From Sphingobacteriales bacterium TSM_CSS (GTDB lineage Bacteria > Bacteroidota > Bacteroidia > Chitinophagales > UBA2359), in NCBI GenBank assembly GCA_002212985.1, contig NBMY01000075.1, forward strand, positions 1-34,160: a DNA stretch of 34,160 nt, read 5' to 3'. The position numbers and the translations under genes were made by a program. Below, piece after piece: positions 1 to 14,031 of the stretch. Positions within the stretch are counted from its first letter, which is position 1, and the number at the start of each line of letters is the position of its first letter. The notes beneath the pieces were generated by a model. It saw only the letters and a program-made list of their open reading frames with translations. It searched no databases and had not been told where the DNA came from.

Positions 1-735
1 ATTATTTTTGAAATATGGCTGAAGCCATTGGGATGCATAATTTCAATTGCCTCCAAATTCAATTGCCTCCAGATAAATCTGGAGAACAATTAAAATGCAA
101 ATTCATAATGGCTTTAGCCGAAATTTTAATTGGGTTGGATTTCCCCGACTGCCGGAATTATAACCATCGGAATGGGCTAAAGCCACATTCCAATTTATAT
201 CAATAGGATTATTTTTGAAATATGGCTGAAGCCATGGGATGCTAAAAATTTTTGAATTGCCCACAGATTTCAATTGCCTCCAGATAAATCTGGAGAACAA
301 TTAAAATGCAAATTCATAATGGCTTTAGCCGAAATTTTAATTGGGTTGGATTTCCCCGCCTGCCGGAATTATAACCATCGGAATGGGCTAAAGCCACATT
401 CCTATTTAAATCAATATGATTATTTTTGAAATATGGCTGAAGCCATGGGAAGCTAAAAATTTTTGAATTGCCCACAGATTTGAATTGCCTCCAGATTTAT
501 CTGGAGAACAACTAAAATGCAAATTCATAATGGCTTTAGCCGAAATTTTAATTGGGTTGGATTTCCCCGCCTGCCCGAATACATAACCATCTAAAGCCAC
601 ATTCCTATTCAAATCAATAGGATTATTTTTGAAATATGGCTGAAGCCATGAGGATGCATAATTTCAATTGCCTCCAGATTTATCTGGAGGAAAAATAAAT
701 GGCAAATCCATTATGGCTTTAGCCAAAATGCTAAT
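1..735. repeat. Tandem array of hairpin-rich ~205-bp repeats (REP/BIME-like)
   Basis: Four head-to-tail units begin at 1, 208, 419 and 622, each opening with ATTATTTTTGAAATATGGCT; spacings are 207, 211 and 203 bp and the fourth unit is cut short next to the transposase stop codon. Each full unit carries several small perfect hairpins: ATGGCT-GA-AGCCAT, CTCCAGAT-(AA/TT)-ATCTGGAG, GGCT-TT-AGCC and GGCT-AA-AGCC. Units are nearly identical over long stretches, with small indels. No convincing gene lies here; short reading frames simply run through the repeat. The hairpin composition and the adjoining Y1 transposase resemble REP/BIME arrays associated with RAYT transposases; that link is an inference. 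Confidence 0.85.
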
Positions 736-1168
736 CCTTGAAATGCTGAAACCCATATTTAATAATGAGCTCATCATATTCTTCCTGAAATGTTTTCTTT
801 TTGTGGTGTTCTTCCTGGTTTTTGATATAATTACGAACCCTGTCAATCATGGACTCGGAAACTGAAACGGCAAAATATTCATCTTGCCATTCAAACTTCT
901 CTGTTGTTAAACCATGTTTGTTTATCCAAAATGAGGACTCTCCTTTTATTAATTGCATCACTTTTTGAATGGTTTGGTCAACACCTAATGAAACCAAACA
1001 GTGGCAATGGTCTGCATAGCCATTGACAAAATCAACAAAAATGCCTTTTTTTTGGGCATTGTCTTGTATATGTTTCCAGACCTTTGTACGCAACTCCTTG
1101 TTATCTAAAAACGGATAACGGTTTTTGGTGCTCCACACAAAGTGAATATAAACTTTTACAAATGGCAT
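731..1168 (-). CDS. IS200/IS605-like Y1 transposase (RAYT type)
   Basis: This 145-residue protein matches the Y1 (HUH) single-strand DNA transposase fold. The N-terminal strand motif is HFVWSTKNRYPFL (residues 9-21), the metal-binding HUH-type motif is H54-C55-H56 in DHCHCLV, and the likely nucleophile is Tyr114 in RNYIKNQ. Length is normal for TnpA/RAYT proteins, so it appears intact. Such enzymes cleave and join single-stranded DNA at hairpins. The stop codon lies only 7 bp from the last hairpin of the flanking array, and another copy of the repeat occurs at 3172-3345, which favours a REP-associated transposase over a plain IS200 copy. The start follows AAGGAG, but only 2 bases separate that motif from ATG, too close for a normal ribosome site. 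Confidence 0.85.
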   Translation of the reverse strand: MPFVKVYIHFVWSTKNRYPFLDNKELRTKVWKHIQDNAQKKGIFVDFVNGYADHCHCLVSLGVDQTIQKVMQLIKGESSFWINKHGLTTEKFEWQDEYFAVSVSESMIDRVRNYIKNQEEHHKKKTFQEEYDELIIKYGFQHFKD

Positions 1169-1293: not shown

Positions 1294-1362
1294 GTTTGCC
1301 TTGCAAAAAAAGCACACTGCGCCGCTACCGCTTGGCGCTGTTTTGCTTTTTTTGAGGCAAAC
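1294..1362. repeat. Long imperfect inverted repeat (69-nt stem-loop)
   Basis: The arm at 1294-1314 (GTTTGCCTTGCAAAAAAAGCA) pairs almost completely with 1344-1362, and inside it GCGCC at 1319-1323 pairs with GGCGC at 1334-1338, so one extended hairpin is possible on either strand. It sits between the TIR-FGE stop and the transposase start. It could end the TIR-FGE transcript, since a run of seven T follows on either strand within the arm. It could also be part of the transposase's DNA target. Confidence 0.6.
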
Positions 1363-1413
1363 TCTACCTACCCTACCGGAAGCTTAAAGGAAATGCCGGA
1401 ATAAGCTAACCGT

Positions 1414-1515
1414 TTACTGCGGGACGAAAGCGAGGCGGAAGCCGCAGTGGCTGCGGCTGTTGGGGGTGATGTTGAAGCGGTACGCCACCCGGCAGTACTG
1501 CGGATCGCTGTCCCA
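1414..1515 (-). other. Putative DGR variable region (VR) at the 3' end of the TIR-FGE gene
   Basis: From W523 to the stop codon the sequence shows the pattern of adenine-mutagenised DGR target genes. Residues D524, S525, Y529, Y534, F536, N537, I538, N541, S542, S544, H545 and C546 are encoded by GAC, AGC, TAC, TAC, TTC, AAC, ATC, AAC, AGC, AGC, CAC and TGC. All are NNC codons reachable from AAC by changes at the two adenines only. Framework residues between them (P527, Q528, R531, V532, A533, R535, T539, P540, R543, G547, F548, R549) fit the usual lectin-fold scaffold. The patch is richer in G+C, with C/G third positions, than the A/T-ending codons upstream. No template repeat or reverse transcriptase was found in the window. 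Confidence 0.55.
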
Positions 1516-3081
1516 ACCGCCACCGCGCAAAACACGGAGCGAACCAGTGTCGGGACCTTTGGGATTATTAGCAGGGCTGTTTGTATAATAACCAGCGTCA
1601 TACCAATCGCTACACCATTCCCACACATTACCGCTCATATCATACAGTCCCAATTCATTGGCTTGCTTTTCTCCTACGGGGTGGGTTTTGCTGCCGCTGT
1701 TATCTCTGTACCAAGCTACGCTACCAATATCATTGCTTCCTGCATATTTATAGCCCTTACTCTTATTGCCCCCGCGAGCCGCGTATTCCCATTCCGCTTC
1801 GGTGGGTAATGTGTAATTTTTGCCCGTTTTGCTGCTCAACCATTTGCAAAATTCCATCGCATCGTTCCAAGATATATGAATAACCGGATGACGGTCGTCA
1901 CTTTGCAATTTTCCATTAACATCGTGTCGCCAATTAATACCATCTTTTTTATTCCAATTGCCGTTTTCCCATATATAACTGCCATAACCATCGGTCCTTT
2001 TTTCGGCATCGGTTTTATACCCGCTGTCTTCAATAAATGCTTTAAATTGGGCAAGAGTTACTTCGTACTTGCCAATGTAGTAATTGTTTAGTGTTACTTG
2101 GTACACGGGTTTTTCATCAGCATTTACATCAATGCTGCCCATCATAAAAGTGCCTCCCTCTACCAAGACCATGTCATTTAGTAGTTGTTGTATGGGAGCA
2201 GGGAGTTTTTTTAAGCTTTCTGCTTGCTCTGAGGCTTGGCGTTTGGCTCTTGCCTTTTTTACCAAGTCTTGTAACTGTGTTTCGTAACTGTTTTGCAGTT
2301 CGGGTTTTAGCCCTATCGCCTTTTGTAGTTCGGCTATGGCTTCGGTGTATTTTTGTTGCGTTTCGTATTTTTGGGCGCGTTGCAGGTGGTCGGTAACCTG
2401 TAATTCTTCTGTACAGTCGTCTATACGTTGCTGTATTGCTTCTCGTGTTGGTTTAAAGCCGTTTTGGTGTTGTTTTAGGGCTTCGTTATAAAGGCGGCGG
2501 GCTTCTTTCCATCCTTTTTGTTCATAGGCTTCCTCGGCTTGGTGGCATGCTTCTATAAATAAAGTTAAGGGCGAAGGAGTTGAGTTGTGTATTTCTTCGG
2601 TTGTAACAATAGGTATCGGTGCAGGAGGAGATACCTTTTGCAAACTTTTCACCAATTCCACCAATCCCTCTAAAACACTATCCAATGCTTCCTCTTGGTT
2701 GCCCCAAGTAGTAATAGGTTTACCATCCTTGGGCAGGGCTTGCAGGGCGGCGAGTTCGGTGTATTTCCAGCCGCAAGGTTTTAAGATGATAGGCACCACA
2801 ATGCAACTGCCTTTGTGGTGTCGCTCCAATGCATCGGCTTTTTCTTTTTCCCAAAAATAATCGGAAGCTATGGCATCGGCACTCATCAATAGCAATATGA
2901 TGTCGGCGGCGTGCAGGTTGTCTTTAATGCTCTGTTCCCATTTTTCGCCGGGCATAATTATTCCATCATACCACATCTTGATGTCGTTGCGGCGTTCTAA
3001 GGGGCGCAAAAACACCCGTAGTAGCTTCAATAGTAGTTCATCTTCGCGGGCGTAGGCTATAAATATTTTAGTGGGGGTCAT
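1414..3081 (-). CDS. TIR-TPR-FGE fusion protein, candidate DGR target
   Basis: The protein has 555 residues in three parts. Residues 1-148 form a TIR domain of the bacterial TIR_2 kind: FIAYAREDE, then ASDYFWEKE with E80 at the position of the NADase glutamate, then a PIILKPCGW strand. Residues 171-290 are helical with two TPR-like repeats (around 182-206 and 236-262). Residues 303-555 form a formylglycine-generating-enzyme/sulfatase-modifying fold: VEGGTFMMGS, LPTEAEWEYAARGG, GLYDMSGNVWEWCSDWY, RVLRGGGW and a final GFRLAF. The first of the paired active-site cysteines of true FGEs is absent at the RGGGW-D position, so the domain probably binds ligand rather than oxidising cysteine. The last 33 codons look like a DGR variable region (separate entry). 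No signal peptide is present, so it is likely cytoplasmic. A NAD-cleaving or signalling role for TIR is family knowledge, not shown here. Confidence 0.9.
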   Translation of the reverse strand: MTPTKIFIAYAREDELLLKLLRVFLRPLERRNDIKMWYDGIIMPGEKWEQSIKDNLHAADIILLLMSADAIASDYFWEKEKADALERHHKGSCIVVPIILKPCGWKYTELAALQALPKDGKPITTWGNQEEALDSVLEGLVELVKSLQKVSPPAPIPIVTTEEIHNSTPSPLTLFIEACHQAEEAYEQKGWKEARRLYNEALKQHQNGFKPTREAIQQRIDDCTEELQVTDHLQRAQKYETQQKYTEAIAELQKAIGLKPELQNSYETQLQDLVKKARAKRQASEQAESLKKLPAPIQQLLNDMVLVEGGTFMMGSIDVNADEKPVYQVTLNNYYIGKYEVTLAQFKAFIEDSGYKTDAEKRTDGYGSYIWENGNWNKKDGINWRHDVNGKLQSDDRHPVIHISWNDAMEFCKWLSSKTGKNYTLPTEAEWEYAARGGNKSKGYKYAGSNDIGSVAWYRDNSGSKTHPVGEKQANELGLYDMSGNVWEWCSDWYDAGYYTNSPANNPKGPDTGSLRVLRGGGWDSDPQYCRVAYRFNITPNSRSHCGFRLAFVPQ

Positions 3082-3111
3082 GCTTAGGTCAACTTATCCT
3101 AACTAAAAGGG

Positions 3112-3119
3112 CAAAAATA
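3112..3119 (-). promoter_or_regulatory. -7 promoter element for TIR-FGE gene
   Basis: On the minus strand this reads TATTTTTG, an exact match to the Bacteroidota -7 consensus TAnnTTTG, 30 bp before the ATG at 3081. No good -33 TTTG is seen at the proper distance, so strength is uncertain. Confidence 0.4.
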
Positions 3120-3171
3120 CAGTTTTATGTTTAGTTAACTTGCATAAAAATTAATAAATTAACAGAATATT

Positions 3172-3345
3172 GGAATGGGCTAAAGCCACATTCCAATTTA
3201 TATCAATAGGATTATTTTTCTAAATATGGCTAAAGCCATTGGAGGATGTCCATAATTTCAATTAAACTCATATTTCAATTGCCTCCAGATTTATCTGGGA
3301 GGACAAATAAAATTCTGCCATATAGCTTTAGCTTCATGCAAATCT
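3172..3345. repeat. Second, diverged copy of the hairpin repeat
   Basis: The stretch from GGAATGGGCTAAAGCCACATTCC matches the tail of unit 1 of the left array (about 170-207). It then runs into a unit head with the same hairpins: TGGCT-AA-AGCCA near 3227 and a CCTCCAGAT/ATCTGG(G)AGG hairpin near 3282-3302 with a one-base insertion. It has the same orientation as the array at 1-735, so the transposase and the TIR-FGE gene are bracketed by direct copies. It is more diverged than the left units and fades out by about 3345. No gene is seen between here and 3470. Confidence 0.75.
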
Positions 3346-3470
3346 ACAATTCATCTTCTCCAAAATCCAGCTACCCCGCGCATAGTTTTAGCTTTGAATT
3401 ATATACCCCACTCACAAGGCACAGCCTTGCGCAGGTAAGCGGCACAAAACCAAGGTACAAAAAGTGAAAT

Positions 3471-4277
3471 TTACCCCATTCCATCGGGTCTTTTCTGGTT
3501 AAACACCCGGAGCATCATTTTAATATCTTCCAATTGTTCTTTCAACTCCTGTTGTTCTTTATACAGCCAGCCCACTGCAGCAATAAGCAGCACCAGTACA
3601 ATGGTAGAAATAACAGATGCCAAACTGGCGCCTGTTCCCGGCTTGCTGCTGTCTGAAACTTCGGTTACCTGACCATCGTTGGCCTGGTTGGCGGTGCCGG
3701 TTTCGGCAGGTTCAACGGTGCGGGGTTGGGGTTTATCGGGGGCAGGGCGGGTTTTTGCTTTTTCGCCGCCATAGGTATTTTGACCAATTTCCAACAGGGC
3801 ATTATTTACAATTACGGCTACTTCCTGCTCCAAACTTGCCGATGTTTGGTTGAAATCTTTGCATATACTGTTGCCCGATTTTGCATATTTATCGCATAAA
3901 TCGCTGTAAGATTGCACCGCAAGGGTTGCCAGATTGTCTAAGGTGGTTTCAAACAATACATACTCGCTGGGGTTATCTACTTTTGTTTTGTAGTTGTTAA
4001 CCTTGCTCAGTATGTCTAAAATATCTTGCTTGTACCCTTTGGTTTTGTTTTCCTGTACTTTGCGCACTTCCTTAACTACCGCCTCGTAGGTACAATCTTT
4101 TATTCCTCTTGCAAGAGAGGCCCGTTCAAAACTGATGAGCATTTTTTTGGCAAGTACGCAGTTAACATCATCAACGGCTTGCTTATAATCGGTTATCTGT
4201 TGCTGTGCCAAAACAGGTAGCCCGCTAAGCGTTAAAAGCAGGGCAAAATAAACAAAACAAAGCTTGTGCATAGTCAT
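3471..4277 (-). CDS. Unknown envelope protein: signal peptide, helical domain, C-terminal TM and coiled coil
   Basis: Family not recognised. The 268-residue product starts with a signal peptide (hydrophobic 6-22, likely cleavage after VLA at 22-24). A mostly helical domain with several cysteines (C40, C62, C128, C139) follows to about residue 170, then a Pro/Thr-rich low-complexity linker (172-215). One transmembrane helix lies at about 219-239, and a short charged coiled coil (EQQELKEQLEDIKMMLRVFN) ends in a basic tail. The topology suggests a single-pass inner-membrane protein with its main domain in the periplasm and a small cytoplasmic coiled coil. An alternative start two codons in (4271) is equally possible. 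It lies downstream of the channel gene, separated by a likely terminator, so it probably has its own promoter. Confidence 0.7.
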   Translation of the reverse strand: MTMHKLCFVYFALLLTLSGLPVLAQQQITDYKQAVDDVNCVLAKKMLISFERASLARGIKDCTYEAVVKEVRKVQENKTKGYKQDILDILSKVNNYKTKVDNPSEYVLFETTLDNLATLAVQSYSDLCDKYAKSGNSICKDFNQTSASLEQEVAVIVNNALLEIGQNTYGGEKAKTRPAPDKPQPRTVEPAETGTANQANDGQVTEVSDSSKPGTGASLASVISTIVLVLLIAAVGWLYKEQQELKEQLEDIKMMLRVFNQKRPDGMG

Positions 4278-4365
4278 ACCAAAATAATTGTATGGGCAGA
4301 GTATCCCGAATGTTGGTTTAAATTTTTATAAGTGGCGCTTTGTTTGGCAAAAATGCGCAATTTTT

Positions 4366-4444
4366 ACATAAAAACAACACAGCAAAGCCAAAAAGTGTTT
4401 GGGATGCCGCACAAAACGGCCGCTGTTGCAACCTGTTGCTGTGT
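4366..4444 (-). terminator. Probable terminator after the K+ channel gene
   Basis: On the minus strand ACACAGCAA (4436-4444) can pair with TTGCTGTGT (4377-4385), and a T-rich stretch TTGTTTTT follows immediately. The loop is long (about 50 nt) and itself structured, so efficiency is uncertain. Confidence 0.4.
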
Positions 4445-4474
4445 GCAAACCTGTAACTTCGGTATATTCTGCTT

Positions 4475-5452
4475 TTAACTTACCGTTTCATAGCGGTTCA
4501 TTGCGCCCAAATCCATGATGGTATTGCCTGTTTCCGATGGGTAAAACGGCGTTACAAATCTGGCATTCCATACAATTTCGTCCCACTTGTAGGAGGTTGG
4601 ACTATATACTTCCTGGGCAAATGAGTCGTCATAACCTTTTATAAGTACCAGAAACTCGGCATCTAAGTTTTTTAAATCTGCTGCCGTTTTGCCATATAAG
4701 GGGCTTTCGGGTGTTATGGGATGTACAATTGTCCAGTTAAGCGGAAAAAAGAATATACGGTTAGCGGTAAGGTCAATTTGGTAATAGCGGCGTTTAGGCG
4801 TTTGGTTTACCATTTCCAAAGTACTCAAAATAACATTGGCTTCGAGATTTACCAACTGGTTGCTGCGTTCATTGGCCAGTCTGAACTGAAAACTCCACCC
4901 ATCTTCAAAAGGAGCTATCACGGCGTTTTGACTAAAAAGGATTTTTGCCGATGGTCTGGAAAACCGCCCGTACAGCAACCCTGTTGCAAGTGCAAAGCCC
5001 ATAACGCCGGTTAATGCCTCGAAAGAGGAAATTGCCCCGGCTGCCACCGATTGAGGAGCCATGCCGCCATACCCGACAGTGGTAAACGTTTGTACGCTGA
5101 AAAAAAAGGCATGGTAAAAATGGGTGCTCCAAATGCCCGTATCGGTTCCGTTAATGTTTTCTATGCCTATGTAAAGGTAAAGCAGGGCAAAAAAACTGTT
5201 TACCCCCAAAAACACCAGCAACACCAAAAGGTAAAACTGCCACCACGGAGCCGCAAGTAAATGCTGGTACAAACTCAGCGCATTCCACTCCGAGCTTCCA
5301 ATGCGCTGAATGTTAAAACTGCCGTTTTTGTTGAGCAGGCGTTTACCCTGTGTTTTGGAACTAAAACCCCAATCTTCAGATAAACGCTGCTGTTGCGAGG
5401 GTTCCTCTGCAAACGGGCTATTTCTGTAAATACCTTTTAAACTTCTTGCCAT
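4475..5452 (-). CDS. KirBac-type inward-rectifier potassium channel
   Basis: A 325-residue two-TM channel. A cytoplasmic N-terminus with an amphipathic slide-helix region (about 55-70) precedes TM1 (72-95). The pore loop carries the K+ selectivity filter TVGYGG at 125-130, and TM2 (about 135-162) leads into a beta-rich C-terminal Kir domain (about 170-310). Length and order match bacterial Kir channels, which pass potassium through a tetramer in the inner membrane. I chose the ATG at 5452 (MARSLKG) because related proteins begin near this point and it leaves a 19-bp gap after the upstream lipoprotein gene. An ATG at 5491 would overlap that gene by 20 bp. The close spacing suggests co-transcription with the lipoprotein gene. 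Confidence 0.88.
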   Translation of the reverse strand: MARSLKGIYRNSPFAEEPSQQQRLSEDWGFSSKTQGKRLLNKNGSFNIQRIGSSEWNALSLYQHLLAAPWWQFYLLVLLVFLGVNSFFALLYLYIGIENINGTDTGIWSTHFYHAFFFSVQTFTTVGYGGMAPQSVAAGAISSFEALTGVMGFALATGLLYGRFSRPSAKILFSQNAVIAPFEDGWSFQFRLANERSNQLVNLEANVILSTLEMVNQTPKRRYYQIDLTANRIFFFPLNWTIVHPITPESPLYGKTAADLKNLDAEFLVLIKGYDDSFAQEVYSPTSYKWDEIVWNARFVTPFYPSETGNTIMDLGAMNRYETVS

Positions 5453-5471
5453 CTTGAATTTTGGATAACTA

Positions 5472-6101
5472 CTACATGGCTGCCATTTCACTTAAAGGCA
5501 TTAATTTGGCAACCGATTTCACCAACTCTGTGTCTTTTTGGTTGGTTGCCTGTATTTTCACCAAAAAACGCTCGCCTACTCCCAACAAAATACCGGCTTC
5601 CTTGTTTGCTTTGTCGTAGGTTTCCATAGCGCCCACATCAGGAATGCCCATATTGAGCGATTTCATGGATTGTTCGTTGTTTTCAAAAGTTACGTTGGCT
5701 TTAATCATGGCGGTTGCCATGGTAAACAAAGAAGGTACGCCATTGTAATCGTTAATAATAATGGTAAGCTCTTCATTGCCCGATTTATAGCGCTGCTGAG
5801 TCATAGAAAAACTCATGCCTTGTGCGCCTACGGTTTGTCCTTCGGGTTGGCCATCGGGAGTAAAGTTATTGACTTGTTTGGGTAAATAGTCTTTCAATTT
5901 GTCAAAATGAATAGGTATGGTATCGCCCTTTGCGCGGCGTGCCTCCATTTTTTTGCTACCTTCCTCAATGGCTTTTTGCATATTTTCGCCGGCTTTTTTC
6001 AGTTCCTGTCCTAATTCAATGTTTTCTTTTGTTTCCTTGGCCTGTTTACAACCGTACATCAAAAATACGGACACAATAAGTAGAAAAATAAGACTTTTCA
6101 T
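5472..6101 (-). CDS. Uncharacterised lipoprotein
   Basis: A 209-residue product whose N-terminus (MKSLIFLLIVSVFLMYGC) is a typical lipoprotein signal with lipobox cysteine C18. A charged helical segment (about 19-60) precedes a compact domain containing FTPDGQPEGQ, SMTQQRYKSGNEELTIIINDYNG and a Met-rich helix. I do not recognise a named family. The frame runs further upstream to an ATG at 6170, but that extension has no sensible signal peptide, so the ATG at 6101 is preferred. A partial -7 match (TTATTTTG, about 6123-6130 on the minus strand) lies just upstream. It is probably anchored to a membrane leaflet and transcribed with the following K+ channel gene; a functional link to the channel is only suggested by position. 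Confidence 0.75.
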   Translation of the reverse strand: MKSLIFLLIVSVFLMYGCKQAKETKENIELGQELKKAGENMQKAIEEGSKKMEARRAKGDTIPIHFDKLKDYLPKQVNNFTPDGQPEGQTVGAQGMSFSMTQQRYKSGNEELTIIINDYNGVPSLFTMATAMIKANVTFENNEQSMKSLNMGIPDVGAMETYDKANKEAGILLGVGERFLVKIQATNQKDTELVKSVAKLMPLSEMAAM

Positions 6102-6300
6102 GGTTTGAATGTTTAATTTTGTGGCAAAATAAACGGCAGTTGTTAAAAAAATGCAACAACCTTGTAACAAATGTACAACTATTTTGCCGTTTTTTTACCA
6201 AGGGCACGGCACTTAGTCTTTCATTTGTAACTGGCAACCTGTTCTTTTCAACCACAACTACATCTCAACTGTTTAGTAAATATCTCATGATAAAACCTAC

Positions 6301-7290
6301 ATGTATTCATCAATGGAACAACAACAAGCAGAAAAAGTAAAATGCCTCATTATTGGTTCGGGTCCGGCAGGTTATACGGCTGCCATTTATGCCGCACGTG
6401 CCAACCTTAAACCCGTATTATACACCGGTGTAGAAGTTGGCGGACAACTGATGCAGACAACCGAAGTAGAAAATTTTCCGGGTTACCCCGATGGTATTTT
6501 GGGTCCCGAAATGATGACTGACCTGCAAAAGCAAGCCGAAAGAATGGGAACCGACATTCGGTTTGGCTATGTAACTTCGGTAGATTTTTCGGGTAAGTTG
6601 CACAAAGTGGTGGTAGATGAAACCACCCAAATATATGCCGAAGCCGTGATTATTGCCACAGGCGCATCGGCAAAATGGCTGGGTTTACCCTCCGAACAAC
6701 GACTGAACGGCAGCGGTGTTTCTGCCTGTGCAGTTTGCGATGGCTTTTTTTACCGCGGTATGGACGTGGCAGTAGTGGGCGCCGGCGATACTGCCTGCGA
6801 AGAAGCCCTGTACCTCAGCAACCTCTGCCCGAAGGTACACATGCTGGTACGGCGAGATGAAATGCGTGCCTCCAAAATAATGCAGGAACGGGTAAAGGCC
6901 AAATCAAATATTCTTGTTCACTGGAATACCGAAACCGAAGAAATTTTGGGCGAAAACACGGTTACCGGTGTACGCGTACTCAATAGCCGCACCAATCAGA
7001 CAACCGAAATTCCTATTCAGGGATTTTTTGTAGCCATAGGCCACAAACCCAATACCGATATTTTTAAGGGCTGGTTAGATATGGATGCAGAAGGCTACCT
7101 CCTAACCAAAAGCGGAAGTTCGCATACCAATGTAGAGGGCGTTTTTGCATCGGGCGATGCGCAGGATAAAATTTACCGGCAGGCTGTTACCGCAGCAGGC
7201 AGCGGTTGTATGGCCGCCTTAGATGCCGAGCGCTACCTTTCGCACAAAGAATTTATGGAATCGCATAACTGGACAGCAGTTTCGCATTAA
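6301..7290 (+). CDS. trxB: Thioredoxin reductase
   Basis: A 329-residue FAD/NADPH-dependent disulfide reductase that keeps thioredoxin reduced in the cytoplasm. The FAD-binding motif GSGPAG is at 19-24, the redox-active CAVC at 143-146, the NADPH-binding motif GAGDTA at 160-165, and the second FAD motif (GVFASGDAQD) lies near the C-terminus. The length is normal for the low-molecular-weight TrxB class. The start could be the ATG at 6301 or the one at 6313 (MEQQQ). It is divergent from the lipoprotein gene, with about 200 bp between them that must hold both promoters. The next gene follows after 50 bp on the same strand. Confidence 0.95.
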   Translation: MYSSMEQQQAEKVKCLIIGSGPAGYTAAIYAARANLKPVLYTGVEVGGQLMQTTEVENFPGYPDGILGPEMMTDLQKQAERMGTDIRFGYVTSVDFSGKLHKVVVDETTQIYAEAVIIATGASAKWLGLPSEQRLNGSGVSACAVCDGFFYRGMDVAVVGAGDTACEEALYLSNLCPKVHMLVRRDEMRASKIMQERVKAKSNILVHWNTETEEILGENTVTGVRVLNSRTNQTTEIPIQGFFVAIGHKPNTDIFKGWLDMDAEGYLLTKSGSSHTNVEGVFASGDAQDKIYRQAVTAAGSGCMAALDAERYLSHKEFMESHNWTAVSH

Positions 7291-7340
7291 TTAATGATAC
7301 CTTGTTTTAGCCGGTTTACAACCCGCCAAATTTCGTAAGA

Positions 7341-8804
7341 ATGAATAATTACCATTATATTGGAATTATAGGTGCCGGATTTGGCGGGCTGACGGCCGCC
7401 TTGCGCCTTCAAAAAGAAGGCATTAACGATTTTATTATTTTTGAACGCGCCATTGATTTGGGGGGAACATGGCGCGACAATATTTACCCCGGTTGCGCCT
7501 GCGATGTGCCTTCGCACCTGTATTCCTTTAAAGACGAACCAAACCCCGAATGGACAAACGTTTTTTCGGGGCAGGCAGAAATTTGGCAATACATGAAACA
7601 AGTGGCGCAAAAACACCAACTTCAGCAACACATTCAATACAATACCGATATTGTAAAAGCCGTTTTTGAGCAGGATAGCGGGCATTGGCAACTTACCGAC
7701 CAAAACGACAGGAAGTTTGAGGTGAAAATGATCATTTCGGCCACCGGACCGCTTAACCGACCCAATATTCCGCCTATTAAAGGCATAGAGGATTATACGG
7801 GCGTAAAATTTCATTCCGCTCAATGGAACACCGGTTGTAAGATGGAAGGTAAAAAAGTAGCGGTAATTGGAACAGGTGCCAGTGCCATTCAAATTGTGCC
7901 GCAATTAGCGCCTATTGCATCAACATTAACCGTTTTTCAAAGATCGGCGGCATGGATTATGCCCCGCCGAAACCGCCCTTACACACAAGTTGAAAAAACT
8001 TTATTCCATTATTTTCCTTCACTGCAAACCTTTAACCGCGAGCGCATTTACTGGGTGGCCGAGTTGCTTGGAAACAACTTTACCGGCAACAAACTGCTCA
8101 ACCGGCTTGCTACCTGGCAAGCCCTGCAAAAGTTGAAAAAAGAGGTAAAAGACCCCGAAACCCGAAAAAAACTTACCCCCCACTACACCATTGGCTGCAA
8201 GCGCATTTTACTATCCGATGATTATTTGCCTGCCTTTAACCGTCCCAACGTACAACTCATAACCAACCACATAGACCACTTTACCACCACAGGCATAGTA
8301 ACTGCCAACGGTCAATTTTACGAAGCAGATGTGGTAATCTTCAGCACCGGTTTTCATGCTGCCGACACCAAAGATTTTGCCCTCTCCATTACAGGGTTAA
8401 ACGGGCGCAATCTTATTGAAGAATGGCAGAAAAAGGGCGTTGAGGCCTATAAAGGCATTACCATTTCGGGGTTTCCCAATCTGGCGCTTATTTTAGGGCC
8501 CAATACCGGGCTTGGGCACAACTCAGTATTGCACATCATGGACTCGCAAATGAATTACATCATTGATTATGTAAAACTGCTTAAAAATCAGGCAACTACC
8601 GGCGCTTTAAACCTTAAACCCAATGTTCAGGCAAGTTATAATCAACTTATACAAAGCCGGTTTGCCGGCACTGTTTGGGCTACCGGCTGCAAAAGCTGGT
8701 ATTTTGATGACATGGGCAGAAATACCACGCTTTACCCCCGTCTTACTGTTCACTACCGCAAAGAAACCCAACACATAAACCCGGCAGATTATCAGTCCAT
8801 TTAA
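7341..8804 (+). CDS. Flavin-containing (Baeyer-Villiger-type) monooxygenase
   Basis: A 487-residue flavoprotein with an N-terminal FAD Rossmann motif GAGFGG (11-16), the conserved GGTWRDNIYPGCACDVPSHLY-like stretch around 41-61, and an NADPH motif GTGASA (177-182). Between them, YTGVKFHSAQW (152-162) fits the Baeyer-Villiger fingerprint [F/Y]xGxxxHxxxW. Family members insert one oxygen from O2 into ketones to give esters or lactones, using NADPH; the substrate here is unknown. The frame is intact. A hydrolase gene follows after 21 bp, which fits a ketone-to-ester-to-acid plus alcohol pathway (inference). Confidence 0.88.
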   Translation: MNNYHYIGIIGAGFGGLTAALRLQKEGINDFIIFERAIDLGGTWRDNIYPGCACDVPSHLYSFKDEPNPEWTNVFSGQAEIWQYMKQVAQKHQLQQHIQYNTDIVKAVFEQDSGHWQLTDQNDRKFEVKMIISATGPLNRPNIPPIKGIEDYTGVKFHSAQWNTGCKMEGKKVAVIGTGASAIQIVPQLAPIASTLTVFQRSAAWIMPRRNRPYTQVEKTLFHYFPSLQTFNRERIYWVAELLGNNFTGNKLLNRLATWQALQKLKKEVKDPETRKKLTPHYTIGCKRILLSDDYLPAFNRPNVQLITNHIDHFTTTGIVTANGQFYEADVVIFSTGFHAADTKDFALSITGLNGRNLIEEWQKKGVEAYKGITISGFPNLALILGPNTGLGHNSVLHIMDSQMNYIIDYVKLLKNQATTGALNLKPNVQASYNQLIQSRFAGTVWATGCKSWYFDDMGRNTTLYPRLTVHYRKETQHINPADYQSI

Positions 8805-8825
8805 TAACCGCAGGGGGCAAGCAAC

Positions 8826-9698
8826 ATGGTACCCATAGAGCAAATAACCATCACTTATCTGCCAAACCGGCATATCAGCGCAATATTATCCATATTTCAC
8901 AAGAACCCTCCCAATTCAGCGCCGGTGTTACTTTGTCTTCCTGCAATGGGCATGGCAGCAAAACATTATGCCCTTTTTGCTCAGGAACTGGCTACACAGC
9001 TTAACTGCATTGCCATTACTACAGATTTGCGCGGATTGGGAACTTCATCGGTGCGCGTAAGAAAAGGGGTTGATTTCGGGTATAAAGAACTGCTGGAAGA
9101 TTTGGAACAAACACTTCATCTCATCAAAAACAAATATCCCGATAGTGAAATTTACCTTGCCGGACATAGCCTGGGCGGTCAGTTATCATGTATGTACAGC
9201 GCGTGGGGTAAAGTGCCGGTTAAAGGGTTAATTTTGGTAGCCTGTTGCTCTGTTTATTACAAAGGCTGGACGGGTTTGGCAGCATTGCGCATTCTGGCAT
9301 TTACCCAAACTGCACGATATCTTAGCCGGATCTTGGGTTATTTTCCGGGCAAAAAAATGGGTTTCGGCGGCACCGAAAGTAAAACCCTTATACAGGATTG
9401 GAGCCACTTAGCCCGAAGCGGACGCTTTGAACCACAAAACATGCAGTTTAATTTCGAAACGGGTATGGCAAAGGTTAATTTACCCATTTTAAACATTGCA
9501 ATTGCACACGACAACTATGCGCCTCCCAAAGCTATTGATTACCTCTGCGCAAAGTTTTCGGCCTCCGTGTCTGTTACCCGCATAACAATTGGCGAAAAAG
9601 AACAAAACACGCCCGTGTTAACCCATATTAACTGGCTAAAATATCCGCAGGTTGTGGTGCCGGTGTTCAAACGGTGGTTGCATGAACAGGACAGGTAA
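8826..9698 (+). CDS. Alpha/beta hydrolase (esterase/lipase-like)
   Basis: A 290-residue alpha/beta-hydrolase with the nucleophile elbow GHSLGG (Ser115) and an oxyanion-region strand VLLCLPAMGM (34-43). A late aspartate sits in NIAIAHDNYAPP and a candidate catalytic His in LTHINW. No signal peptide is seen, so it is likely cytoplasmic. The gene starts 21 bp after the monooxygenase stop and probably shares its transcript. Hydrolysis of the ester made by the monooxygenase is a reasonable inference, but the substrate cannot be read from the sequence. Other possibilities are a thioesterase or lysophospholipase-like enzyme. Confidence 0.8.
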   Translation: MVPIEQITITYLPNRHISAILSIFHKNPPNSAPVLLCLPAMGMAAKHYALFAQELATQLNCIAITTDLRGLGTSSVRVRKGVDFGYKELLEDLEQTLHLIKNKYPDSEIYLAGHSLGGQLSCMYSAWGKVPVKGLILVACCSVYYKGWTGLAALRILAFTQTARYLSRILGYFPGKKMGFGGTESKTLIQDWSHLARSGRFEPQNMQFNFETGMAKVNLPILNIAIAHDNYAPPKAIDYLCAKFSASVSVTRITIGEKEQNTPVLTHINWLKYPQVVVPVFKRWLHEQDR

Positions 9699-9717
9699 AC
9701 CCCGAAAACAGTTAGAA

Positions 9718-9731
9718 ATATTTGCAAATAT
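9718..9731. promoter_or_regulatory. Perfect 14-bp palindrome before the GH18 gene
   Basis: ATATTTGCAAATAT is an exact palindrome 54 bp before the ATG at 9786. Its left half (AATATTTG with the flanking base) resembles the Bacteroidota -7 element, so it could be an operator overlapping a promoter. No matching -33 element is clear. Confidence 0.3.
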
Positions 9732-9785
9732 AGTTTAAACCAACCGCCCGTGGCAGTGTCATAAACCCATAAAACACCCCAAGCC

Positions 9786-12506
9786 ATGAGAAGCCTGTTT
9801 ATACTTGCCTTGTTGACCGTTTTTACTGCCATTCAAGCTCAGGACACACAACTGCTGCCTCCTCCTGCGCAGGCAGCAGCTAACTTTATGTCGGCAAGGC
9901 AGCAGCAAATTGCTTTTTACAAACAGTTTGCCTTTGCCTCCGAAGCGCAGTACGACAGCCTGAACCGCATTATGTATGGCGAGGGGGTTAAAGGAGGTAG
10001 TACATCGGGTAAAGGAGTGCAAAAATCGGGCTCTTGTACCCTTAACCGGCAAGTGTACGGCTGGCATCCGTATTGGAACGGCGCATCGGTTTATGAAAAT
10101 TACGATTTTTCGCTGCTTTCTACTTTTTCCTATTTTGCTTATGAACTGAACCCCTCAACAGGCAGTTATTACGATATTCACTACTGGAAAACCACCAACT
10201 CCATTACCCTTGCACAGGAAGCAGGTGCAAGAGTAGATTTGTGCGTTACCAACTTTGGCACCACACCTAATATAACCTTCCTTGGCAACCAAACGGCCTG
10301 GCACCGCTTTGCCGATAGCCTGATTGTGCTGCTCAACTACCGAAATGCCGATGGGGTAAACATAGATTTTGAGGGAATGCCCGGCAGTCAGCGCAATAAC
10401 TTTACCAACTTCATCTCCTACCTCCGAAATCGCCTGAATGCCGACCGGCCCAGCACCACCATCAGCATTGCACTATATGCCGTTGACTGGACAAATGTGT
10501 TTGATATTACCGCCCTTAACCCCTTGGTTGATGCCTTTATTGTGATGGGTTACGATTACCACTATTCTGCCGACAGCCAGGCCGGCCCGGTATCGCCGCT
10601 GTACCACGGTACCCGTTGGGGAACCTACACCTTAAGCAGAACTGCCGATACCTATCTTACGCAAGGCGTTACTCCCGCCAAACTGCTCATGGGCATACCT
10701 TACTACGGCTACGACTGGAAAACCGAAACAACAAACATACCGGCTGCTACCATTGACAACGCCGATACCCGTACTTACAGCTACCTTCGCAATAATTTTT
10801 TCGGCACCTACACCCGTCAGTGGGATTTGCACAGCTTTTCGCCCTATTTCAGCTACACTTCGGGCGGTAGTACGCGGCAGTGCTGGTTTGAAGATGAACA
10901 AAGTCTTGCTGCCCGCTATGATATGGTGCTGAACCGGCAAATGGGCGGCATTGGCATTTGGGCTTTGGGTTACGACAACGGTTACCCCGAATTGTGGAAC
11001 CTCATAGAAGAAAAATTTACCGATTGCCATACCTATTGCAGCGGCAACTTTAATGATTCCGGTGGGCCGCAGGGCAATTACCGCAATAACGAAAACAGCG
11101 TTTTTACCCTTGCCTCACCCGACCCGGGCGGACAAATTACCCTGTCTTTTACCTCCTTTAATACCGAAGCCAACTACGATTTTTTGCGCATCTATGATGG
11201 GGCTACCACCTCTGCACCTCTGCTGGGAACGTTTTCGGGCAATATTAACCCGGGCACTTTTACCTCATCGGGAAATGCGCTTACCATTCGCTTCACTTCC
11301 GATAATGCTACTCTTGCCCCCGGCTGGGAAATTAACTGGTATTGCGGCTGCAACCACATTACCGCCATTGAACCGCTTGAAACACAATACAACAACGATT
11401 TTACCGCCTATTTTACCGAAACCGGCAACTGCAATGCAGGGGTAAAATATGGTTTTTACCAATCGCAGCAATCCTGGGGCGGCGCATGGCGCAGCAATAA
11501 CAATATCGGCTTTTTTAACGATGATTTTACCGCCACCGCCCTGCACCCCGATTGGCAGTCTGCATCGGGTAATTGGCAAATAACCGATGGCAGTGTTTGG
11601 CAAACCGATGATTCAAACAGCAACACCAACCTGTTTACCCCCGTTCATCAGTTTGGAACCGAAGTGTGGCTGTTTCACTGGCGGGCAAAAGCCGCCGGTT
11701 CCGATGTTTACAGCCGCCGCGCAGGTATGCATTTCTTTGCCTCCGATGGTAATGCAACTAACCGCGGCAACTCGTACTTTGCTTTTGCCCGGTTTGACGA
11801 CGATAAGGCACAAATTTATAAAGTTACCGGCAACACCTTTGAACTGATGGCCAATGCCGATTTTGATTTTGCTCCCAACCAATGGTACGATTTTAAAACC
11901 ATATACAACCCTGTTTCGGGACTCATTGAGCTGTATGTAAACAACGCCATGGCCACCTCCTGGACCGACCCAGAACCCTACTTGACCGGCGAGTATATTT
12001 CCTTGCGAACCGGCAATAGCAAAGCCTATTTTGATTTTGTGCGGGTGTACCGCGCCCGAAGCAATCAGGAAAACATATCGGTAGGCAACAGCCCAACCGA
12101 TGAGGTAAACCAAACAGCGCATGAATGCCGCATCTTGTCGTTATCCAATTATTCCGATAACAAATGGAGCAACTTAGCCCAAGCCGAAACCGGCATTGCC
12201 TTTACCGTAAACACTCAGGAAACGTTGCTGCCCGATGCGCAAAACAACCCCGCCCCTACCCTGTTGCTGTACCCAAACCCTGCCCATGATATGGTACAGG
12301 TTGTATTTACCGCCGCGGACTACGGTACCGCGCAACTTACCTTATACGACCTTGCCGGAAGGCAAGTGCAACAGCAGCCTCTTGGCATTATTGCCGGAAA
12401 CAATACCTTTCAGGTGATGCTGAACCAAATACCCGCAGGTATGTACCTGCTTTCCATTGTTGATGAAAACGGAAATGCCACCCAACAAAAATTGGTGGTG
12501 AGGTAA
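9786..12506 (+). CDS. Secreted GH18 glycosidase with CUB-like domain and T9SS type A signal
   Basis: A 906-residue secreted enzyme. A signal peptide (1-18, AQA|QD-like) is followed by a GH18 TIM barrel (about 85-410). It has the chitinase-family signature DGVNIDFEG at 189-197, with E196 as the expected proton donor, and the substrate-contact strand VMGYDYHYS. A CUB-like beta domain follows (about 425-520, NYDFLRIYDG and APGWEINWYC), then a LamG/lectin-like segment (about 575-755). The C-terminal tail (from LLYPNPAHDMV to KLVVR, about 828-906) is a type IX secretion signal. The likely role is hydrolysis of chitin, peptidoglycan or N-glycan outside the cell; family evidence does not decide which. 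The stop codon is followed by a weak GGCAA/TTGCC hairpin. Confidence 0.92.
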   Translation: MRSLFILALLTVFTAIQAQDTQLLPPPAQAAANFMSARQQQIAFYKQFAFASEAQYDSLNRIMYGEGVKGGSTSGKGVQKSGSCTLNRQVYGWHPYWNGASVYENYDFSLLSTFSYFAYELNPSTGSYYDIHYWKTTNSITLAQEAGARVDLCVTNFGTTPNITFLGNQTAWHRFADSLIVLLNYRNADGVNIDFEGMPGSQRNNFTNFISYLRNRLNADRPSTTISIALYAVDWTNVFDITALNPLVDAFIVMGYDYHYSADSQAGPVSPLYHGTRWGTYTLSRTADTYLTQGVTPAKLLMGIPYYGYDWKTETTNIPAATIDNADTRTYSYLRNNFFGTYTRQWDLHSFSPYFSYTSGGSTRQCWFEDEQSLAARYDMVLNRQMGGIGIWALGYDNGYPELWNLIEEKFTDCHTYCSGNFNDSGGPQGNYRNNENSVFTLASPDPGGQITLSFTSFNTEANYDFLRIYDGATTSAPLLGTFSGNINPGTFTSSGNALTIRFTSDNATLAPGWEINWYCGCNHITAIEPLETQYNNDFTAYFTETGNCNAGVKYGFYQSQQSWGGAWRSNNNIGFFNDDFTATALHPDWQSASGNWQITDGSVWQTDDSNSNTNLFTPVHQFGTEVWLFHWRAKAAGSDVYSRRAGMHFFASDGNATNRGNSYFAFARFDDDKAQIYKVTGNTFELMANADFDFAPNQWYDFKTIYNPVSGLIELYVNNAMATSWTDPEPYLTGEYISLRTGNSKAYFDFVRVYRARSNQENISVGNSPTDEVNQTAHECRILSLSNYSDNKWSNLAQAETGIAFTVNTQETLLPDAQNNPAPTLLLYPNPAHDMVQVVFTAADYGTAQLTLYDLAGRQVQQQPLGIIAGNNTFQVMLNQIPAGMYLLSIVDENGNATQQKLVVR

Positions 12507-12683
12507 TTCATCAAAGGGCAAATAAAATTGCCGGTAATGAGCTTATATTAACGTCAGGCAGACTTTTTTGGCATGCTCAAACGCTTACACTATTGCAAAA
12601 TGCCGGAGATAGATTTCGGTGCGCTGCATTTTTGCCAAACCAACACCATTAAAATTCATAGCGCTCTGAAATCCTGGCAACCG

Positions 12684-12856
12684 ATATTCTGGTTTGCTGA
12701 TTGATAAGAATGGCAATAAACGTTACGGCCAGCATCATCAACAACCCCGATAACCGCCTGAAACCGGGTATATGGCGCATATCGGCTTTGCGGTTTATGA
12801 GCAGCAGTGTGGCAATCATCACAATGATGGGTAAAAAATATACGGCGCATTTACCT
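12684..12856 (-). pseudogene. Duplicated fragment of the 185-aa membrane-protein gene
   Basis: This segment is almost identical to 13617-13790 inside the intact gene, in the same orientation and offset by 933-934 bp. Visible differences are single substitutions at 12690 and 12701 and a one-base deletion plus substitution near 12844. It corresponds to roughly residues 83-137 of the 185-residue protein (from about YFLPIIVMIATLLL to IILI-QQTRI) and has no start or stop of its own. The near-identity indicates a recent duplication or an assembly artefact. Confidence 0.85.
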
Positions 12857-13473: not shown

Positions 13474-14031
13474 TCAATCTACGCGGTAGGTAGTTCCCTT
13501 ATCGGAATCGTCTTCATCTGAAGGGCTGAACAATTTGTTCCAACCAAGGTAAAACGCCACAAACAACACAATAAACAACCCGAAAAGATACACCACCGAA
13601 CCATGAAACACCACCCATATTCGGGTTTGCTGAATGATAAGAATGGCAATAAACGTTACGGCCAGCATCATCAACAACCCCGATAACCGCCTGAAACCGG
13701 GTATATGGCGCATATCGGCTTTGCGGTTTATGAGCAGCAGTGTGGCAATCATCACAATGATGGGTAAAAAATATACCAGCGCATTTACCTCCAGCAAGCT
13801 GCGCTGCCGTTCAAAAAACAGGGTGTAAACGCACAACACCAAAGCCATAATGCCCGGCACACTCGACATATACACCAAAGCGGAATAAAAATACTTCCAC
13901 GGATTTTGCCGGGCTTCCTCGCGGGTGGTCAGGCTGCCGGCAATGGCAGCGGCAACCGGCAACAGGATAAAATAAATAAGAACCGGAGCCGGGTTGGCTG
14001 CCAATATGTCAAAAAATTCCTGTAGAGTCAT
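13474..14031 (-). CDS. Uncharacterised multi-pass membrane protein
   Basis: A 185-residue protein with about five hydrophobic helices (approximately 16-34, 48-68, 82-100, 114-133, 139-160) and an acidic C-terminal tail (SPSDEDDSDKG) likely in the cytoplasm. I do not recognise a named family. It starts 12 bp after the gltX stop and so is almost surely co-transcribed with it; the pairing may be only operonic. An internal 170-bp part of this gene is duplicated at 12684-12856. Confidence 0.75.
   Translation of the reverse strand: MTLQEFFDILAANPAPVLIYFILLPVAAAIAGSLTTREEARQNPWKYFYSALVYMSSVPGIMALVLCVYTLFFERQRSLLEVNALVYFLPIIVMIATLLLINRKADMRHIPGFRRLSGLLMMLAVTFIAILIIQQTRIWVVFHGSVVYLFGLFIVLFVAFYLGWNKLFSPSDEDDSDKGTTYRVD

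What the first reader, a model, noticed from the sequence alone, without database searches (positions are those of the whole stretch)
1414..1515. TIR-FGE protein ends in a DGR-like hypervariable region
Twelve of the exposed positions between W523 and G547 are NNC codons that differ from AAC only at its two adenines (GAC, AGC, TAC, TTC, ATC, CAC, TGC, AAC), while the intervening framework residues match the constant scaffold of FGE/C-type-lectin DGR targets. The patch is visibly richer in G+C with C/G third positions, while the gene upstream uses A/T-ending codons, as expected if this end is rewritten by retrohoming from a template elsewhere. DGRs with such C-terminal FGE-fold variable regions are established knowledge; that this gene is one of them is inference from the codon pattern.
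Basis: partly seen in the sequence, partly recalled or inferred. Interest (0 to 1): 0.88.

Follow-up and report, generated by a model that had tools for sequence, protein, structure and literature searches.

The report
TIR sensor with hypermutable DGR end
In a draft genome of an uncultured Bacteroidota bacterium, a gene that joins a TIR domain to a lectin-like fold ends in a patch with the codon signature of retroelement-driven hypermutation; the patch is likely rewritten from a template that this assembly lacks, which would give the cell a changeable sensor, probably for defence.

Summary
Observation confirmed. The gene at 1414-3081(-) encodes TIR-TPR-FGE and ends in a 40-codon, C/G-ending patch. 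Comparison still supports a DGR (diversity-generating retroelement) variable region. Nine FGE genes of the genus end in related patches. Against four real DGR templates of the same family, window and C129 differ at 18 bases, 15 of them at template-adenine columns, with 0 of 34 third positions changed against 104 of 175 upstream. Of 116 template-AA codons in the nine, 113 end in C or T. A 92%-identical orthologue differs at all three variable residues it covers before it breaks off. The shared cassette runs past the stop into a 69-nt hairpin with a GGTA loop, which fits the GRNA rule for DGR targets and recurs behind the variable region of a complete DGR in same-genus UBA2322. Conclusion: a remote DGR target, rewritten in trans or recently orphaned. 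The TIR is ThsB-like. TIR- and kinase-linked DGR targets are already known, so this is a new member of a known kind; the missing template and the shared hairpin address are the interesting parts.

The parts
1414..3081 (-). TIR-TPR-FGE gene, 555 aa
   Evidence: open frame; Pfam FGE-sulfatase 225 bits, TIR_2 41.8 bits, TPR_2 20.3 bits (below its cut-off of 27)
2737..3066 (-). TIR domain (residues 6-115)
1429..2178 (-). FGE/C-type-lectin-fold domain (residues 302-551)
1435..1536 (-). variable region, codons 516-549 (variable codons lie in 524-546)
   Evidence: differences to C129 at 15 of 27 template-A columns and 3 of 75 others, 0 of 34 third positions
1363..1413 (-). non-coding block behind the stop, shared with the other VR genes; possible homing-initiation region (inferred)
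   Evidence: alignment of seven genus members
1294..1362 (-). 69-nt hairpin with GC-GGTA-GC apex; likely DGR target-recognition element (inferred)
   Evidence: folds at -25.9 kcal/mol, z -6.1, as single-stranded DNA; a stem pattern hits 7 places in three genus genomes, 6 of them behind VR genes; apex shared with the VR of the complete UBA2322 DGR

Best explanation
The TIR-TPR-FGE gene carries, in its last 40 codons, the codon signature of a diversity-generating-retroelement variable region, and is likely a remote target rewritten in trans by a reverse transcriptase and a template RNA that are missing from this assembly. By the known DGR mechanism, an RT would copy an AAC-rich template with random bases opposite its adenines, and the cDNA would replace the end of the gene, with the conserved block behind the stop and the GGTA-loop hairpin at 1294-1362 marking the site. 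The exchanged residues lie on an FGE/C-type-lectin fold. In the alignment to true FGEs the first cysteine of their cysteine pair faces S525, a variable residue, so the domain is predicted to bind and not to catalyse. Binding of a ligand, probably a phage or other foreign antigen, would switch on the ThsB-like TIR domain (NAD+ cleavage or a cyclic-ADP-ribose-type signal). Shown here: codon signature, shared cassette, hairpin, fold matches of the predicted model, and a complete related DGR in a same-genus genome. Inferred: trans activity, present activity, the ligand and the immune role. I give about 0.8 to 'DGR-made variable region' and about 0.55 to 'still rewritten'.
For: Four complete DGRs of the family (UBA2322=G001, G004, G005, G009) have FGE-type variable ends and templates of the same frame; template-to-VR substitutions at template A are 16 of 17, 14 of 17 and 17 of 20 (two G004 targets), 14 of 17 and 16 of 17. 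With a mask from these four templates, all 10 within-group pairs of nine genus VRs are skewed to mask columns (Fisher p 6e-11 to 5e-4, pairs not independent). Third positions: C7-C129 0 of 34 in the VR against 104 of 175 upstream (p 2.8e-12); C7-C103 4 of 34; C53-C86 0 of 35; C21-C53 1 of 35; C110-C238 4 of 35. 113 of 116 template-AA codons end in C/T. Orthologue P0001, identical at 477 of 517 residues upstream, differs at 3 of 3 variable residues seen. Hairpin with GRNA-type loop in 6 of 7 testable genus VRs and behind the UBA2322 VR; GRNA loop and stem rules from PMC3240598 (abstract and section 10 read).
Against: No RT or template in the own genome, and no template for this cassette family in G001, rated 99% complete, or in G002. 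The UBA2322 template is not the donor: 22 non-A mismatches to the window VR. C103 has three codons outside the NNY rule. Over all nine VRs, 28 of 76 non-mask columns also vary. A paralogue pair in G001 (C223 copies) shows third-position differences in the VR at the upstream rate (7 of 35 against 47 of 202). The hairpin lies 51 nt behind the stop and is longer than the 7-10-bp stems 4-34 bp behind the VR that PMC3240598 gives for phage DGRs. No population data were seen.
Confidence: 0.8

Rival explanations
1. Orphaned variable region: a DGR made the diversity in the past, RT and template were then lost in this genus lineage, and the VRs are now frozen binding surfaces.
For: No template for this cassette family in three genus genomes, one rated 99% complete; the single clear RT of G001 belongs to another template; C103 and the C223 copy pair show changes outside the pattern.
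Against: 0 of 34 third-position changes between C7 and C129 next to a strongly diverged FGE domain argue for a recent common template; P0001 differs at 3 of 3 variable residues at 92% identity; contigs end just behind or inside the cassette in C223 and C86, so a template could be lost in assembly.
Confidence: 0.3
2. No retroelement at all: positive selection on exposed residues, plus gene conversion among FGE paralogues, gives variable surface codons and a uniform frame.
For: Paralogous FGE genes with related ends exist in each of the three genus genomes, and conversion could copy the 3' end and its flank.
Against: Selection on residues does not hold third positions at C/T in 113 of 116 codons or keep K, E, Q, M and W out of 8 of 9 VRs, and the variable columns coincide with template adenines of independent DGRs.
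Confidence: 0.06
3. An ordinary conserved FGE C-terminus that happens to be GC-rich.
For: FGE ends are conserved in many proteins, and a paralogue in the same genome, C52, has an FGE tail without the pattern.
Against: NNC excess with a binomial tail of 3.3e-6 and the comparative tests.
Confidence: 0.02

Closest known systems
DGR targets of Thiohalocapsa PB-PSB1 (PMC10907252; passages read)
   Same: Lectin-fold (CLec, incl. FGE) C-terminal VRs on proteins with TIR, kinase or NTPase domains; some targets are remote and best explained by trans activity, others sit at loci with disrupted machinery
   Different: There some templates match remote VRs at all non-adenine sites and diversification was seen in populations; here neither template nor population data are at hand
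Cyanobacterial remote variable proteins (PMC7517822; passages read)
   Same: CLec domain grafted to Ser/Thr kinase and, less often, TIR-like domains; many remote targets, matches near 3' ends
   Different: Remote targets there are tied to a template in the same genome; here the host is Bacteroidota and no template is found
BPP-1 phage DGR and its target hairpin (PMC3240598; abstract and section 10 read)
   Same: Hairpin behind the VR, stem sequence free to differ, GRNA loop (here GGTA or GGCA)
   Different: Here the hairpin is 69 nt long, has an inner bulge and lies 51 nt behind the stop; its function is untested
Treponema denticola variable protein 2y3c
   Different: No TIR or TPR match was reported for it; only the fold of residues 294-554 was compared
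Thoeris ThsB
   Same: Best PADLOC match of the TIR part, E 5.2e-36 over residues 4-150
   Different: Here the TIR is fused to a TPR-like stretch and an FGE domain, and no ThsA partner was identified (uninformative)

Membership tests
Complete (cis) DGR | DGR-type reverse transcriptase in the same locus or genome | tested here: not met
   No RVT_1 match in the own genome while 3 of 14 control genomes rang; the UBA2322 RT finds nothing there. The draft is 86.9% complete.
Complete (cis) DGR | Template repeat in the same locus or genome | tested here: not met
   DNA searches with C7, C110 and C21 VRs give VR genes as the strong hits and no template; short matches with E above 0.02 were not inspected one by one
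Remote DGR target (variable region) | Variation concentrated at template adenines, first and second codon positions | tested here: met
   Tested against the adenine mask of four templates of relatives, not against its own template
Remote DGR target (variable region) | Match to its own template at the non-adenine sites | tested here: inconclusive
   No own template found; the UBA2322 template fits its own VR (1 non-A mismatch) and not this one (22)
Remote DGR target (variable region) | C-type-lectin/FGE fold carrying the VR at the C-terminus | tested here: met
   Pfam; predicted model aligned to solved FGEs and to DGR variable protein 2y3c
Remote DGR target (variable region) | Hairpin behind the VR with a GRNA loop | tested here: met
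   Sequence and folding only: GC-GGTA-GC apex, z -6.1; shared with 5 other genus VRs and the UBA2322 DGR; C103 lacks the apex. Effect on homing untested.
Remote DGR target (variable region) | Variants within a population | not testable with these tools
   No reads at hand; one orthologue (P0001) differs at 3 of 3 variable residues seen
Thoeris | ThsB-type TIR protein | tested here: met
   PADLOC ThsB E 5.2e-36 over residues 4-150; by profile only, NADase activity untested
Thoeris | ThsA effector partner | tested here: inconclusive
   PF18185 (STALD; its link to ThsA is recalled) matched none of four genomes, but no control genome rang either; of three neighbouring genes scanned, one is a Y1 transposase, one an IRK channel, one has no Pfam match

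The most novel reading that the evidence does not exclude
A genus-wide network of dispersed sensors (a ThsB-like TIR protein and several Ser/Thr kinases) shares one homing cassette and one hairpin address with a GGYA loop, and an off-site DGR, perhaps on a plasmid or phage that assemblies lose, rewrites them in trans: a somatic-like repertoire plugged into TIR and kinase signalling.
Probability: 0.3. Interest if true: 0.75.

Novelty: new member of a known kind. Interest (0 to 1): 0.52.

Why it matters
If the gene is still rewritten, the cell owns a TIR switch whose recognition surface is changed by a dedicated machine, and the same cassette sits on kinases elsewhere in the genome. The shared hairpin suggests a way to find remote DGR targets without knowing their template; PMC8144416 states that its survey of metagenomes would not detect remote targets (passage read).

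Tried and rejected
Template in the window: the 20 largest direct-repeat families listed include no copy of the VR. Template in the own genome or relatives: strong hits are VR genes only; G001 C138 is not an FGE or template stretch; short hits with E above 0.02 were not inspected one by one. G003 (another genus) has an FGE gene with an in-frame stop and an AAC-rich VR-like end, noted but not claimed as template. Exact predicted-template pattern: 0 hits in viral contigs and 0 in genome contigs. Scaffold pattern: 0 in viral contigs, 5 stretches in genome contigs: 1 in UBA2322, 2 in TSM_CSM, 1 Streptomyces stretch without an FGE frame, 1 Ectothiorhodospiraceae FGE gene with a VR-like end. UBA2322 template as donor: rejected. 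G002 C28 weak RT hit (E 0.009) with a tandem repeat: not taken as a DGR. TIR relatives: 26 of 198 genomes matched; of 10 regions fetched around such hits, 2 showed an FGE VR-like end by my regular expression, and my RT expression found none in 19 loci, but that expression was never tried on a known RT, so this is inconclusive. RNAalifold on loosely cut hairpins found only the inner stem. The 14-mer hairpin apex hits 5 places in the genus, 3 behind VR genes and 2 in G001 that are not. STALD search uninformative. Literature: 8 searches; DGR + FGE-sulfatase + TIR, DGR + TIR domain + Bacteroidota, and ThsB + formylglycine gave 0 papers each; Thoeris + DGR gave 2, seen as listings. This is no proof that nothing is in print.

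Rows left out of counts: the tenth VR of the genus (first C223 copy) was aligned but left out of the pair tests there and absent; it was compared. G003 C238, G003 C71 and L089 were left out as lying outside the genus. C223 and C86 end at contig ends, so their hairpins could not be folded.

Full report

The observation. In codons 524-546, 17 of 23 codons are NNC, against 26.8% in codons 1-515. Third-position G+C of codons 516-555 is 0.85 against 0.43-0.44 in the rest. In the alignment to true FGEs the first cysteine of the pair in their 'LC....YC' stretch faces S525 and the second faces C530 (read). That this pair is catalytic is recalled; the titles of the C336S and C341S mutant structures fit it. 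So the domain is probably a binder.

The own genome has no RVT_1 match, while 3 of 14 control genomes rang, and the UBA2322 RT finds nothing there. Searches with three VRs (C7, C110, C21) gave VR genes as the strong hits in the genus genomes and no template; weaker short hits were not inspected one by one. A predicted-template pattern had no exact match in viral contigs or genome contigs. Alone this would count against the idea. But the draft is incomplete, contig C223 of G001 ends about 75 nt behind the stop of one VR gene, contig C86 of G002 ends inside the post-stop block of another, and the orthologue P0001 breaks off inside the VR. A repeated cassette could break assemblies in this way (inference).

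Complete DGRs in the family. In UBA2322 an FGE gene (L060 4572-5288), an RT (6102-7094) and a template (7206-7335) lie together; template and VR differ by 17 substitutions, 16 at template A. G009, G005 and G004 also show template/VR pairs near RTs, with 16 of 17, 14 of 17, and 14 of 17 and 17 of 20 substitutions at template A. The four templates share the frame GGSW-NN(N/K)-xx-N-CR-xx-N-R-NNN with the window's end.

Test with an independent mask. Columns with A in at least three of these four templates (29 of 105) were taken as predicted variable. Nine VRs of the genus were compared within three groups set by their post-stop block. Window C7 against C129: 18 differences, 15 in 27 mask columns, 3 in 75 others, none at a third position. 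All ten within-group pairs are skewed (Fisher p 6e-11 to 5e-4; not independent). Upstream, in the FGE domain, the same pairs differ most at third positions: C7-C129 104 of 175 codons against 0 of 34 in the VR, p 2.8e-12; in the VR C7-C103 4 of 34, C53-C86 0 of 35, C21-C53 1 of 35, C110-C238 4 of 35. Of 116 template-AA codons, 113 end in C/T; K, E, Q, M, W occur 3 times, all in C103. Against the reading: those three C103 codons, 28 of 76 non-mask columns that vary over all nine VRs, and a paralogue pair in G001 whose VR third positions differ about as often as upstream (7 of 35 against 47 of 202).

A close orthologue. P0001 (523 aa) is identical at 477 of 517 residues up to G521, then reads S-W-L-N-F-P where the window reads G-W-D-S-D-P, and ends. 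Three of three variable residues differ; each could come from an AAC or AAT codon by changes at the adenines.

The cassette continues past the stop. C7 (TIR), C110, C238 and C103 (Ser/Thr kinase domains), C129 (5' end cut off by the contig end), C21 and C53 (FGE only by Pfam) share the non-coding block behind the stop. Three of the seven FGE-family hits of the own genome carry the VR-like end (C7, C129, C110). A hairpin follows in all seven members whose flank could be folded: z -3.4 to -7.3 for six, and -6.1 for the window in its full cut (a cut that lost one arm gave -1.6). Two different outer stems occur, but six of seven keep the apex GC-GGYA-GC; C103 does not. The same apex sits behind the VR of the UBA2322 DGR and was not seen in the 120 nt behind its template. 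A pattern from the window's stem hits 7 places in the three genus genomes: 6 behind these VR genes, the seventh inside an open frame of G002 without a VR. A scan for GC-GRNA-GC hairpins in 29 loci (308,943 bases, many chosen because they hold VRs) found 9 places, 7 behind VRs; mononucleotide shuffles gave 6 in 20 x 84,162 bases. The scan was designed after the first hairpins had been seen. For BPP-1, Guo et al. report that the stem's sequence can vary while a GRNA loop is needed (abstract and section 10 read); GGTA and GGCA fit GRNA.

How it most likely works. As a remote DGR target: an off-site RT and template rewrite the patch, with post-stop block and hairpin as address. Trans activity, and targets at loci with disrupted machinery, are described in PMC10907252, and remote targets in PMC7517822 (passages read). 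The variable surface would sense a ligand, probably from an invader, and the TIR would signal. I give about 0.8 that this is a DGR-made variable region, about 0.55 that it is still rewritten, and less for an immune ligand. E80 of the TIR is invariant among nine aligned homologues; that it is the catalytic glutamate is recalled.

Known or new. TIR-like and kinase domains on DGR lectin-fold targets are in print (PMC7517822, PMC10907252), and FGE-type domains in such conflict systems too (PMC7159879, passages read). So this is a new member of a known kind. What I did not find in the passages read or in my eight literature searches is a ThsB-like TIR-TPR-FGE target in Bacteroidota or a comparison of hairpin addresses across remote targets.

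Noticed in passing
window 731-1168(-), repeats at 1-700 and 3180-3300: A Y1 (IS200-like) transposase gene lies behind the TIR-FGE gene; AT-rich repeats of up to 211 nt lie on one side of the pair and return on the far side of the TIR-FGE gene, as if the two genes were bracketed by the same repeat family.
   Followed up: partly
window 12680-12843 and 13613-13776: A 164-nt direct repeat at 98% identity; the second copy lies in the 3' part of a predicted membrane-protein gene (13474-14031), the first is a detached copy.
   Followed up: no
L071 (G003 C238), about 5912-6030(-): An FGE gene with an in-frame stop just before an AAC-rich, VR-like end (NRNNNTP...), perhaps a decayed target close to its template.
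   Followed up: partly
L068 (G004 C654), behind the three VRs: All three targets of this DGR carry a shared long hairpin with another apex (GAGCGTTAAGC) that was not seen behind the template, so DGR lineages may have their own hairpin addresses.
   Followed up: partly
L060 (G001 C106) 2702-12129: The complete UBA2322 DGR lies among a caspase-like gene and genes that look by eye like LRR/GTPase-TIR proteins (a TIR match lies in this stretch), a neighbourhood of the conflict-system kind.
   Followed up: partly
L089 (Ectothiorhodospiraceae bacterium T3Sed10_218), 1000-1032: An FGE gene end in a very distant bacterium matches the cassette's scaffold pattern exactly.
   Followed up: partly
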